NCBI GenBank assembly: GCA_020152595.1
Contig: JAIGNY010003782.1
Location: 750,001 to 814,000, forward strand
Length of the DNA stretch: 64,000 nt
Direction: 5' to 3'
Source of the DNA: Chiridota heheva
Taxonomy: Eukaryota; Echinodermata; Holothuroidea; Apodida; Chiridotidae
Part shown: piece by piece, positions 34,301 to 40,300 of the stretch
Numbering within the stretch: position 1 is the first letter of the stretch
Layout: each line of letters opens with the position of its first letter
The notes under the pieces: model-generated
Told to the model about the DNA's origin: nothing
Database searches by the model: none
The model's input: only the letters and a program-made list of their open reading frames with translations
Position numbers and translations under genes: made by a program

Positions 34301-37300
34301 GTTTGGGGAGTGGAGGAGGAGCTGGGATGGGGAGGGGCTGGTGGAGGGGAGGGAAGGGGTGGAGGGGGAGGGAAGAAGTGGAGGGGGAGGAGGTGGGAAA
34401 AAAACAAAAAGTACCAAAAAAAGGCCAAAAATACCCAAATTGGCTAAAAAAGGCCAAATTTGGAACAAAAAATTAAATTTGCAGGATTTTCCCCCCTTTC
34501 TATTATTTTTTAAGGGGCAATTTGATAATATGTGTGGGAATCCCGCACCTTAATGTGAACACAGCCAATGCAACTAACTCACCTGATCGAGGGTAGTTTG
34601 GCAGATAGAATAATCCTCTATGGATAACTCGTGCCTATGAGCCTCCATGATACCAAATAATCTTGACAGAGCTGTTCCTGTGGATGGGAGCTGGAACTCT
34701 AGCATATTGAGGTGCTGCTCCCTCAGCGATGAACCCTCAAAGTTGGTTGCGATGAAATCAAAGATAAGATCCAGGGAGTAGAGGGAGGAGGATGCACGTA
34801 GGGTTAAAACGTATCCATCCCCAAACCTGTAAGAACAATCACAGATGCAGAGTTGGAATTAATCATCAAATTTCCAGCGGTTCTGAATAAAGGTGTCAAA
34901 TATCTTCCCACAAAAAGTCGTGACAGAAATAATATTAATGTAGAAAATACATTAAGTTTAAACCTCGCAATACATTTTGTGTTTTATGTCCCAACAAAAT
35001 CTCAAATCTGCCAGGGTCGATATTGCTCACAACAGCAGCCACGATCCAGCACAAGCAATTACACCATGGATTTCTTATTTCTACAATCCACACACTTCAC
35101 CTCACTTTCCATGGTCATAATCTGACATTGATAGTAAACAAATTTCACTACAGCTGCACTGACTTTCACACTCAACACAAGGACAAAAGTATTCCCCCTG
35201 TGGTCAATGTGTCTGGCTTGAAGTAATAATGTACAAATAGGATTGTATTTAACAGTGCAGGTTTTGTTTATTTATTGATGAGTGATTTCAGTGATGTTTT
35301 TGTTTGTTTGTTTGATGAGGGCTTAACAGCACCACGACATCGAGGGTCAAATTGTGCCTGAGAGGTTAAATCATTACAGAGCTTTTTGTTCAACCTTTTA
35401 GGCTTTGAGAATTTTGGACTGAAAAGCTATTGTAACAGATATTCATCATAACATCTTTATATGCTCACACTTAACCACACATGTTCCCTCTTTGGCAATT
35501 TAATGTATACTATTCATCCCACAATTACATCAAATACAGTTTCCCAGCACATGACGGTACTAATGACCTTTGATGTGAATGTTCAAGCCCACTGTTATAA
35601 CTTATACAGGAATACTTTTCAACGACACAAGTATCAAAAATGGCAACTCTGTTATTTCAAAATTCCCTTGAATTAGCACCAATAAAAAACGCCCTCACTT
35701 TTTGACCAAGAGTTCTTTTACAACACCAACATCCATCTTGCACCACTGAAGACAAATAAGACATTGGAAGAGACTACTTGGATATCTCGTTGTATTCAAG
35801 AGATATTCAGTTTCAACATTTTCACATTTGTGTAAAAATACTGGGTAAAGTCAATGTGACATCACAAATATAAACATTACACCCTTACTTCTGAAATTAT
35901 CAGGATTTGAAGATGACTGTTTCGGCAGAATGTTGATATGCGTATTTAATGCACGGGAATTTGACCCGACTAGAATGACCTGATTTTAGGAGGGTCATTC
36001 GCGAGTGCAAAGTCGTTTGAACTGTGCATTAAATATGCATATAAACACTCTGCCAAAACAATAAACTTAAAAAAAAAAATTGTGTTAGATTGTTTCAAAT
36101 GCATCAAAACAACTAAAAAGAATGAAAAGTTTACATATATTTTATCGCTTTATTAAAAAAATTACCTGTTTTGAAAATGGAATAAACCAAATAATAATTG
36201 TCGTGTATTAATAGGATATAATGCATGGGTCATAACAATGCAAATACTTCATCTAATATTATTGTTATTAATTAAAAATATTCCAAAATATTCTTTCTGG
36301 TCAGAAATCTCAATTACTTCACTAGAGTATGTTCTAGTACTCTCCTGACATACCCAATAAAATCTCATAACTTTTTTCTCAGAACTTTTTTCTCCTAAAA
36401 CATTTGCCGAAATGCAAGGCTGTGATGTTATTACTTTAGTCTTATTTACAAGTTTATATATCTTCAGAAACAACAAGATTTTTTTTCTTTAATACTTTCT
36501 TCACTATTTCTCTCTTTACTGCCTTTTTTCATTAAAAAAAAAAAATGCATGGTCACTAAAAGCATCCCTCAAACCTCAATTAACTGTTTTATTTTTGACC
36601 AAATGATTTTTTTTTTCTTTCTGTTTCGCAAATATGATCTAAATATCTGAAGACTAAATAAAGGACTTACTTGGTCTTTAGATGTTGCGTACTTCCAAGG
36701 CATTTGAATGTGCCATTCACCATGATTGCTAGCCTTGTACACAGAGCTTCACACTCCTCCATACTGTATTGAAAACAAAAGCAAATGTAAATAAATGTTT
36801 GAGTACACACCTATTCATTTCTTTGTTTGTTTTGCACATTTAGGCATATGCCAGGAAAACTAGGGAAGTCACAATGACTTCCAGTGTGTATCCGATGCAT
36901 TTGCCAAGATGGAAAGTGGATGAACACCCTGCTCTTTTCAAGAAGTGTTCAGAGAACCAGGCAGGGGGAGAAACCCCTACCATCGGGACCGACGGCTTTA
37001 CGGAAGGACGGTGAGCGCCACCCAACCATTGGCCACTTTTCACAAAGGTCGGGTGGGGGAGAAAGTGTGATGCAGACGATAAACCTCTGCACTCGATGTC
37101 ATCGTAAATCATTCTGCATATTTGTGGAAAAATGGCTGGTTAAATCGACGTTGGACTCGAACCTGGGACCTCCAGCATATCAGTCGTACGCTCAACCGAC
37201 TGAGCTACCTGCCTCCCTCGTACACTCAACCGACTGAGCTACCTGCCTCCCTCGTACACTCAACCGACTGAGCTACCTGCCTCCCTCGTACACTCAACCG

Positions 37301-40300
37301 ACTGAGCTACCTGCCTCCCTCGTACACTCAACCGACTGAGCTACCTGCCTCCTCGTACACTCAACCGACTGAGCTACCTGCCTCCCTCGTACACTCAACC
37401 GACTGAGCTACCTGCCTCCCTCGTACACTCAACCGACTGAGCTACCTGCCTCCCTCGTACACTCAACCGACTGAGCTACCTGCCTCCCTCGTACACTCAA
37501 CCGACTGAGCTACCTGCCTCCCTCGTACACTCAACCGACTGAGCTACCTGCCTCCCTCGTACACTCAACCGACTGAGCTACCTGCCTCCCTCGTACACTC
37601 AACCGACTGAGCTACCTGCCTCCCTCGTACACTCAACCGACTGAGCTACCTGCCTCCCTCGTACACTCAACCGACTGAGCTACCTGCCTCCCTCGTACAC
37701 TCAACCGACTGAGCTACCTGCCTCCCTCGTACACTCAACCGACTGAGCTACCTGCCTCCCTCGTACACTCAACCGACTGAGCTACCTGCCTCCCTCGTAC
37801 ACTCAACCGACTGAGCTACCTGCCTCCCTCGTACACTCAACCGACTGAGCTACCTGCCTCCCTCGTACACTCAACCGACTGAGCTACCTGCCTCCCTCGT
37901 ACACACTCAACCGACTGAGCTACCTGCCTCCCTCGTACACTCAACCGACTGAGCTACCTGCCTCCCTCGTACACTCAACCGACTGAGCTACCTGCCTCCC
38001 TCGTACACTCAACCGACTGAGCTACCTGCCTCCCTCGTACACTCAACCGACTGAGCTACCTGCCTCCCTCGTACACTCAACCGACTGAGCTACCTGCCTC
38101 CCTCGTACACTCAACCGACTGAGCTACCTGCCTCCCTCGTACACTCAACCGACTGAGCTACCTGCCTCCCTCGTACACTCAACCGACTGAGCTACCTGCC
38201 TCCCTCGTACACTCAACCGACTGAGCTACCTGCCTCCCTCGTACACTCAACCGACTGAGCTACCTGCCTCCCTCGTACACTCAACCGACTGAGCTACCTG
38301 CCTCCCTCGTACACTCAACCGACTGAGCTACCTGCCTCCCTCGTACACTCAACCGACTGAGCTACCTGCCTCCCTCGTACACTCAACCGACTGAGCTACC
38401 TGCCTCCCTCGTACACTCAACCGACTGAGCTACCTGCCTCCCTCGTACACTCAACCGACTGAGCTACCTGCCTCCCTCGTACACTCAACCGACTGAGCTA
38501 CCTGCCTCCCTCGTACACTCAACCGACTGAGCTACCTGCCTCCCTCGTACACTCAACCGACTGAGCTACCTGCCTCCTCGTACACTCAACCGACTGAGCT
38601 ACCTGCCTCCTCGTACACTCAACCGACTGAGCTACCTGCCTCCCTCGTACACTCAACCGACTGAGCTACCTGCCTCCCTCGTACACTCAACCGACTGAGC
38701 TACCTGCCTCCCTCGTACACTCAACCGACTGAGCTACCTGCCTCCCTCGTACACTCAACCGACTGAGCTACCTGCCTCCCTCGTACACTCAACCGACTGA
38801 GCTACCTGCCTCCCTCGTACACTCAACCGACTGAGCTACCTGCCTCCCTCGTACACTCAACCGACTGAGCTACCTGCCTCCCTCGTACACTCAACCGACT
38901 GAGCTACCTGCCTCCCTCGTACACTCAACCGACTGAGCTACCTGCCTCCCTCGTACACTCAACCGACTGAGCTACCTGCCTCCCTCGTACACTCAACCGA
39001 CTGAGCTACCTGCCTCCCTCGTACACTCAACCGACTGAGCTACCTGCCTCCCTCGTACACTCAACCGACTGAGCTACCTGCCTCCCTCGTGACACTCAAC
39101 CGACTGAGCTACCTGCCTCCCTCGTACACTCAACCGACTGAGCTACCTGCCTCCCTCGTACACTCAACCGACTGAGCTACCTGCCTCCCTCGTACACTCA
39201 ACCGACTGAGCTACCTGCCTCCCTCGTACACTCAACCGACTGAGCTACCTGCCTCCCTCGTACACTCAACCGACTGAGCTACCTGCCTCCCTCGTACACT
39301 CAACCGACTGAGCTACCTGCCTCCCTCGTACACTCAACCGACTGAGCTACCTGCCTCCCTCGTACACTCAACCGACTGAGCTACCTGCCTCCCTCGTACA
39401 CTCAACCGACTGAGCTACCTGCCTCCCTCGTACACTCAACCGACTGAGCTACCTGCCTCCCTCGTACACTCAACCGACTGAGCTACCTGCCTCCCTCGTA
39501 CACTCAACCGACTGAGCTACCTGCCTCCCTCGTACACTCAACCGACTGAGCTACCTGCCTCCCTCGTACACTCAACCGACTGAGCTACCTGCCTCCCTCG
39601 TACACTCAACCGACTGAGCTACCTGCCTCCCTCGTACACTCAACCGACTGAGCTACCTGCCTCCCTCGTACACTCAACCGACTGAGCTACCTGCCTCCCT
39701 CGCACACTCAACCGACTGAGCTACCTGCCTCCCTCGTACACTCAACCGACTGAGCTACCTGCCTCCCTCCTCGACACTCAACCGACTGAGCTACCTGCCT
39801 CCCTCTACACTCAACCGACTGAGCTACCTGCCTCCCTCGTACACTCAACCGACTGAGCTACCTGCCTCCCTCGTACACTCAACGGACTGAGCTACCTGCC
39901 TCCCTCGTACACTCAACCGACTGAGCTACCTGCCTCCCTCGACTGACACTCAACCGACTGAGCTACCTGCCTCCCTCGTACACTCAACCGACTGAGCTAC
40001 CTGCCTCCCTCGTACACTCAACCGACTGAGCTACCTGCCTCCCTCGTACACTCAACCGACTGAGCTACCTGCCTCCCTTAATTTGTGGATCTACGTCTGT
40101 ACTCCTTCACCAATTGAAAACAATTGGAATACATTATAGACAAGGCATCACAAGATGGAGGCACCATGGGTGGCTGATGTTCAACACAGTGCTGTCTATA
40201 ACCATCACCAAAAACAGTTGTGACAAATCCCTTCTCCCCGCCACCAATGTTGCAAGTCGCAATTTCCCAACTTTCTTGCAAAGCGCACAATAATGTTAAA

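What the first reader, a model, noticed from the sequence alone, without database searches (positions are those of the whole stretch)
37187..40078. Satellite of about 82 Pol III A boxes born from a tRNA-SINE head
Each nearly identical 35-bp unit carries TAGCTCAGTCGG on the minus strand, a perfect A-box match, and the array runs straight out of a SINE that still has both A and B boxes. A tandem field of A boxes without B boxes, inside an intron and in the sense of the host gene, could bind TFIIIC weakly, start short Pol III transcripts, or act as an insulator-like site. The homogeneity points to recent expansion.
Basis: partly seen in the sequence, partly recalled or inferred. Interest (0 to 1): 0.75.

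Follow-up and report, generated by a model that had tools for sequence, protein, structure and literature searches.

The report
Minisatellite grown from a SINE head
A 2.9-kb block inside a gene's intron is made of 85 near-identical 34-letter copies of the first part of a tRNA-derived jumping element, which is a clear but essentially ordinary example of a mobile element turning into a tandem repeat.

Summary
The array is real: 37184-40077 holds 85 head-to-tail copies of a 34-bp unit (not 35 bp, not 82). 72 of 85 are identical and 84 of 85 carry a perfect A box, minus strand. It abuts, in the same orientation, a tRNA-type SINE with an A + B box pair at tRNA spacing. The unit is SINE nucleotides 1-34; the SINE-proximal unit keeps GAGC, the other 84 share GAGT. 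The array fills 74% of a 3,935-bp intron of an ABCA1-like gene, in sense.

Two older SINE relatives lie in the window; one carries a 23-bp array (32586-34031) grown from the SINE body. I picked 16 arrays by hand from TRF; they cover 20.0% of the window and 14 of 16 show no clear SINE match, so array growth here does not need A boxes.

A Pol III, TFIIIC or insulator role is not supported: TFIIIC binds mainly through the B box, the unit has none beyond chance, and only two A boxes are within reported A-B range. Best reading: a young, probably neutral SINE-derived minisatellite, a kind described in reptiles. Genome-wide copies, long reads and Pol III data were not available.

The parts
37184..40077 (-). 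Tandem array: 85 copies of 34-bp unit GGGAGGCAGGTAGCTCAGTCGGTTGAGTGTACGA (minus strand), the SINE-proximal copy being the SINE's own head
   Evidence: TRF (which adds one base at the far end); unit split; pattern counts
37184..37217 (-). SINE-proximal unit = SINE nt 1-34; only unit with GAGC instead of GAGT
   Evidence: (unit index 84), coordinates
36916..37217 (-). SINE copy 1 (head plus body); 3' end approximate, where clear homology with copy 2 fades
   Evidence: blastn; alignments (74 of 98, 116 of 146 and 77 of 90 aligned bases identical to the other copies, above all of 200 single-base shuffles each)
37196..37207 (-). A box TAGCTCAGTCGG of the SINE
37153..37163 (-). B box GGTTCGAGTCC, the only site in the window with at most one mismatch to GGTTCGANTCC
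37128..37132 (-). TTTTT, potential Pol III terminator just after the tRNA-like head
32586..34031 (-). Second array, 23-bp unit x about 62, grown from the body of another copy of the same SINE family
   Evidence: unit matches SINE copy 1 better than all 300 shuffles; array flanked on both sides by SINE body
32508..34168 (-). SINE copy 2, no recognisable head, body interrupted by the 23-bp array; no CpG in the two pieces examined (272 bp)
21961..22059 (+). SINE copy 3, old head fragment, 74 of 98 aligned bases identical
36764..40698 (-). Intron (3,935 bp) of ABCA1-like gene that holds the array and the SINE
   Evidence: splice junctions and reading frame; joined exon peptide best matches ABCA1
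40699..40802 (-). Upstream exon of ABCA1-like gene (DEPTTGMDPKSRRFLWNC...)
36671..36763 (-). Downstream exon of ABCA1-like gene (...SMEECEALCTRLAIMVNGTFKCLGSTQHLKT...)

Best explanation
A SINE-derived minisatellite. A fairly young tRNA-type SINE inserted in sense orientation in an intron of an ABCA1-like gene. Its first 34 bp were tandemly duplicated; one copy then lost a CpG (GAGCG to GAGTG), and that copy was amplified to 84 copies by slippage or unequal exchange, which also keeps them homogeneous. This happened in a region rich in long minisatellites, where a second copy of the same SINE family grew a different array from its body. The A boxes are inherited passengers; most likely neither they nor the array has a selected function. 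Shown: structure, SINE homology, the shared difference of 84 units, gene context. Inferred: order of events, slippage or unequal exchange, neutrality.
For: 85 units, 72 identical. The proximal unit differs from the consensus by one base, as a CpG to TpG change in the founder would give, so the amplified units descend from one derived copy. The SINE exists apart from the array: copies 2 and 3 share its body and head. Copy 2 carries its own array from another SINE part. Of 16 hand-picked arrays (20.0% of the window) 14 show no clear SINE match. The array is young or homogenised: 0 of 85 units show TpG or CpA at the unit-end CpG (83 of 85 keep it, 2 are altered by length changes), and 84 of 85 keep the other CpG motif. 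CpG observed/expected is 0.90 in the array and 0.76 in SINE copy 1, against 0.0 and 0.28 in copies 2 and 3 and 0.43 in the window. Variants are enriched in the outer 11 units (5 of 13, hypergeometric p 0.011, cut chosen after looking). RNA folding of four sense units is ordinary (z -0.83).
Against: No population, long-read or sister-species data, so copy number and neutrality are untested. 10 of 13 variant units contain or adjoin length changes, which could be assembly errors. No target-site duplication of more than 6 bp was found at the ends of the whole element; a 9-bp match (TCCACAAAT) joins the far flank to a point inside the SINE, which this model treats as chance because copies 2 and 3 align across that point. 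The link between arrays and SINEs is weak once the focal copy is left out (P = 0.096).
Confidence: 0.83

Rival explanations
1. Functional Pol III field: the A boxes capture TFIIIC or TFIIIB weakly, start short Pol III transcripts, or insulate chromatin.
For: 84 of 85 units keep a perfect A box; the SINE next door has an A + B pair at tRNA spacing; no T-run of 4 or more lies within the array on the sense strand before T5 at 37128-37132.
Against: TFIIIC affinity comes mainly from the B box; in yeast, mutating the A box did not significantly change lifetime or affinity (passages). The unit has no B box beyond chance. Only 2 of 85 A boxes lie within 31-93 bp of the B box. Perfect A boxes are expected simply from homogeneity. 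14 of 16 hand-picked arrays in the window have no clear SINE relation, so A boxes are not needed for expansion.
Confidence: 0.05
2. RNA-level birth: the first 34-nt duplication was made during retrotransposition, when the reverse transcriptase jumped from the 5' end of the SINE RNA onto another SINE or tRNA 5' fragment; DNA-level slippage then expanded it.
For: Given the far flank as upstream context, homology with copy 3 starts at SINE nt 2, so the unit seems to start at the SINE 5' end. It ends at tRNA position 31, just before the anticodon loop (numbered by hand from T8 at unit position 11; the numbering scheme is recalled): about the length of a 5' tRNA half (recalled).
Against: One locus only; the 5' end rests on one diverged copy. 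Copy 3 shows no relic of a doubled head: with an array unit as upstream context its alignment grows from score 87 to 91, reached by 329 of 1000 shuffles. The tRNA cloverleaf is not recognised. The sister array arose inside the SINE body, where no 5' jump is needed.
Confidence: 0.1
3. Assembly artefact: a short array expanded by the assembler.
For: Long identical runs, up to 18 units; several variants are one-base length changes in a G run, as in uncorrected long reads (recalled).
Against: 13 variant units spread over the array give it internal landmarks; many other arrays with different units are resolved in the same window.
Confidence: 0.07

Closest known systems
SINE-derived satellites (sSats) of squamate reptiles, Vassetzky et al. 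2023 (PMC10702118; parts 1-3 of 5 and one passage read)
   Same: Tandem arrays from part of a tRNA-related SINE, most with a longer terminal unit that continues to the SINE terminus at one end; different parts of one SINE family can seed arrays; long arrays are the most homogeneous; initial duplication by unequal homologous recombination proposed.
   Different: [quoted passage not shown] the main snake unit includes the B box. Here the unit is 34 bp with the A box only, in an intron, probably in an echinoderm; number of loci unknown.
Amphibian Pol III tandem families (Hydromantes Hy/Pol III, Xenopus satellite 1/OAX), listed in PMC9659126 (passages) and discussed in PMC10702118
   Same: Listed in the review as tandem repeats from a SINE tRNA-related region.
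   Different: Longer units (Hy/polIII about 200 nt; OAX called too long for a proper satellite). PMC10702118 finds their SINE origin inconclusive and notes no box B in Hy/polIII. Here the parent SINE is directly attached.
Alu- and B1-derived minisatellites of human and mouse (PMC9659126 passages)
   Same: Minisatellites that arose from part of a SINE; 2663 human minisatellites are stated to be associated with Alu.
   Different: Alu and B1 are 7SL-related (recalled); here the SINE is tRNA-type.

Membership tests
SINE-derived satellite/minisatellite | Head-to-tail array of a unit homologous to part of a SINE | tested here: met
   85 units; the proximal unit is the SINE head itself, 33 of 34 bases equal to the consensus unit
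SINE-derived satellite/minisatellite | Terminal unit extends into the rest of the SINE | tested here: met
   Body continues from 37183 down to about 36916, parts shared with copies 2 and 3
SINE-derived satellite/minisatellite | Higher homogeneity inside the array than among SINE copies | tested here: met
   72 of 85 units identical against 74 of 98 and 184 of 224 aligned bases identical between SINE copies
SINE-derived satellite/minisatellite | Many loci in the genome | not testable with these tools
   The genome search 'own' did not complete
tRNA-derived SINE | Internal A and B boxes at tRNA spacing | tested here: met
   1 match against 0 in 100 shuffles
tRNA-derived SINE | Dispersed related copies | tested here: met
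   Two further partial copies in the window
tRNA-derived SINE | Target-site duplication and simple 3' tail | tested here: inconclusive
   No duplication beyond 6 bp at the putative ends; 9-bp match to an internal site; tail not defined
tRNA-derived SINE | Recognisable tRNA fold | tested here: not met
   ARAGORN none in the window; no Rfam tRNA match at E up to 10, only one unrelated sub-threshold hit. I therefore call it tRNA-type from the promoter boxes and D-arm only
TFIIIC insulator (ETC-like) site | TFIIIC binding site of high affinity (B box) | tested here: not met
   No B box in the array unit beyond chance; the single B box belongs to the SINE. Occupancy itself is not testable here

The most novel reading that the evidence does not exclude
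The founder unit is an RNA-made copy of a 5' tRNA-half-like SINE fragment (SINE nt 1 to the last base before the anticodon loop), joined by template jumping during retrotransposition, so that SINE heads in this genome are systematically seeded with A-box arrays.
Probability: 0.08. Interest if true: 0.6.

Novelty: new member of a known kind. Interest (0 to 1): 0.3.

Why it matters
It is a very clean case of a mobile element turning into a tandem array, with the parent still attached, a founder difference visible and a sister array from another part of the same SINE family about 3.2 kb away. It would let the seeding and growth of minisatellites be dated in a region that is rich in them. It gives no reason to look for a Pol III function beyond the single SINE promoter.

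Tried and rejected
Insulator or TFIIIC platform: rejected on B-box absence and published affinities. Structured repeat RNA: four sense units fold no better than shuffles (z -0.83, 43 of 200 shuffles as good). Hidden B box in the unit: best match 4 mismatches, as in most shuffled units. Stand-alone tRNA pseudogene ending in TTTTT with 9-bp duplication TCCACAAAT: considered because, judged unlikely because copies 2 and 3 align across that point. A doubled head already present in copy 3: not supported (329 of 1000 shuffles as good). A catalogued RNA gene: none at gathering score in the window, no tRNA, and only unrelated sub-threshold matches near copies 1 and 3. Other loci: no exact match of 23 bases of the SINE head, 20 bases of the body or two tandem heads in viral contigs, which is not a collection where an animal repeat would be expected. 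Species: among 120 listed of 374 hits of one mobile-element ORF, 4 carry an organism's name, all Apostichopus japonicus; a lead, not an identification.

Arrays: the 15 arrays were merged and picked by hand from the 61 TRF rows. I first left out 185-346 (18 bp x 8.8, 70% matches); with it there are 16 arrays and 12,830 bp, and it too shows no SINE match (192 of 300 shuffles as good). Also left out: micro-satellite rows (periods 4 to 15 at 9004, 18835, 57180) and short rows of few copies.

Papers: PMC10702118 parts 1-3 of 5 and one passage; PMC9659126, PMC11811891, PMC11724288, PMC8580430, PMC5638244, PMC10344927 passages only; all others search listings. Searches for earlier reports: (several listed only the best 15-25 of hundreds). 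Among the titles and abstract starts listed I saw no 34-bp A-box array and no SINE-derived array in an echinoderm.
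Full report
The observation. The array exists and is far beyond chance. TRF reports 37184-40078 with period 34, 85.0 copies and 99% matches; the 85 units fill 37184-40077. On the minus strand the unit is GGGAGGCAGGTAGCTCAGTCGGTTGAGTGTACGA; 72 of 85 units are identical and 13 of 85 differ, mostly in or next to small length changes. The A-box core occurs 85 times against 0.05 expected; 84 of 85 units have a perfect A box.

The parent. The array continues without a break into a sequence with one exact A + B box pair at tRNA spacing, 1 against 0 in 100 shuffles. 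This B box is the only one in the window with at most one mismatch, though 1.6 are expected at that laxity, so the pair and not the B box alone is the evidence. Two relatives in the window show that it is a dispersed element. Copy 3 (21961-22059, plus) matches the head at 74 of 98 aligned bases. Copy 2 (about 34168-32508, minus) matches the body at 116 of 146 and 77 of 90 aligned bases on the two sides of its own array. All scores exceed 200 single-base shuffles each. The tRNA fold itself is not recognisable, so 'tRNA-type' rests on the promoter boxes and the D-arm. Copy 1 has 17 CpGs (observed/expected 0.76); the pieces of copies 2 and 3 examined have 0 and 2 (0.0 and 0.28). Copy 1 therefore looks younger.

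A second array. Copy 2 is interrupted by the 23-bp array 32586-34031, whose unit matches SINE copy 1 better than all 300 shuffles. Two different parts of one SINE family thus grew arrays about 3.2 kb apart. I picked 15 arrays by hand from the 61 TRF rows (12,668 bp, 19.8%); with one that I had left out, 185-346, there are 16 (12,830 bp, 20.0%). 14 of 16 have no clear SINE match; the nearest to one is the 22-bp unit at 6646-6941, reached by only 3 of 300 shuffles. If arrays fell at random on non-array sequence, two or more of 15 in SINEs would have P = 0.016; leaving out the focal copy, by which the SINE was found, one or more of 14 has P = 0.096 (with rounded SINE lengths). So an affinity for SINEs is suggested, not shown.

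How it grew. The SINE-proximal unit has GAGCG, as expected for an intact D-arm, while all 84 others have GAGTG. A CpG to TpG change in one copy followed by amplification of that copy is the simplest account. Variants are commonest in the outer 11 units (5 of 13; p 0.011, a cut chosen after looking), the pattern expected if inner units are homogenised. No unit shows TpG or CpA at the unit-end CpG: 83 of 85 keep it and 2 are altered by length changes. Growth or homogenisation is recent. Slippage or unequal exchange is inferred; the paper on reptile SINE satellites proposes unequal homologous recombination for the first duplication (passage).

Where the unit starts. With the far flank as upstream context, homology with copy 3 begins at SINE nt 2, so the unit seems to start at the SINE 5' end, and by hand numbering it ends at tRNA position 31, just before the anticodon loop (T8 at unit position 11). 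This is what an RNA-level origin from a 5' tRNA-half-like fragment would give, but it is one locus and one diverged relative. Copy 3 has no supported relic of a doubled head (score 91 against 87, reached by 329 of 1000 shuffles).

Gene context. Exons at 40699-40802 and 36671-36763 (minus) splice in frame to a peptide whose best solved-structure match is ABCA1 (junctions; the last residue of the 66 searched takes one base from the donor). The intron is 3,935 bp and the array fills 73.6% of it. In the sense strand the unit contains CAG|GTAGCT, which matches 7 of 9 donor consensus positions, as does the true donor of the upstream exon (8 of 9 for the downstream exon); all 85 CAGGTA sites of this intron lie in the array. 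Whether these decoy donors matter is untested.

Function. TFIIIC binds the B box with nanomolar and the A box with micromolar affinity; A-box mutation did not significantly change lifetime or affinity in yeast; the A-B gap is given as 30-67 or 31-93 bp (passages of PMC11811891 and PMC11724288). Here the gaps are 32, 66, 100 and 134 bp for the four nearest A boxes, so one or two A boxes could serve the SINE's own B box, and the rest are bare. The unit has no B box beyond chance. A field of bare A boxes lacks the element that gives TFIIIC its affinity. A Pol III transcript from the SINE promoter would meet TTTTT at 37128-37132, about 90 nt from the SINE 5' end. I therefore treat the array as a passenger and probably neutral, with confidence 0.83 for the whole account.

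Known or new. Vassetzky et al. searched 56 squamate genomes and describe SINE-derived satellites with units of about 70-290 nt from different SINE parts and, in most, a longer terminal unit that reaches the SINE terminus (PMC10702118). This array has the same anatomy with a shorter unit. It is a new member of a known kind. The window is probably echinoderm, from the names of 4 mobile-element hits only.

Limits. Copy number elsewhere, polymorphism and transcription remain open.

Noticed in passing
32586-34031 (minus): 23-bp x about 62 minisatellite grown from the body of a second copy of the same SINE family.
   Followed up: yes
whole window, e.g. 26716-27762, 40971-42830, 44112-44891, 50296-51062: 16 hand-picked minisatellites cover 20.0% of the window; 14 of 16 show no clear link to the SINE; the cause of this array richness is unknown.
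   Followed up: partly
37184-40077 (minus): Units carry a splice-donor-like CAG|GTAGCT in the sense of the host gene: 85 CAGGTA sites in one intron, all in the array.
   Followed up: partly
40081-40089 and 37120-37128: Nine-base direct match TCCACAAAT (minus) between the flank beyond the array and a point just after the SINE head; probably chance, but a target-site duplication of a short head-only element is not fully excluded.
   Followed up: partly
6646-6941: 22-bp array whose unit matches the SINE as well as only 3 of 300 shuffles do; probably chance among 16 arrays tested.
   Followed up: no
55666-56842 (plus): Pieces of ORFs with many relatives, one of which a source names GIY-YIG endonuclease; Penelope-like by my reading (recalled); the 4 hits with an organism's name are from the sea cucumber Apostichopus japonicus.
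   Followed up: partly
11427-13143 (plus) and 49195-49677 (minus): ORF pieces that look by eye like non-LTR retrotransposon reverse transcriptase and RNase H; possible partner LINE of the SINE, not tested.
   Followed up: no
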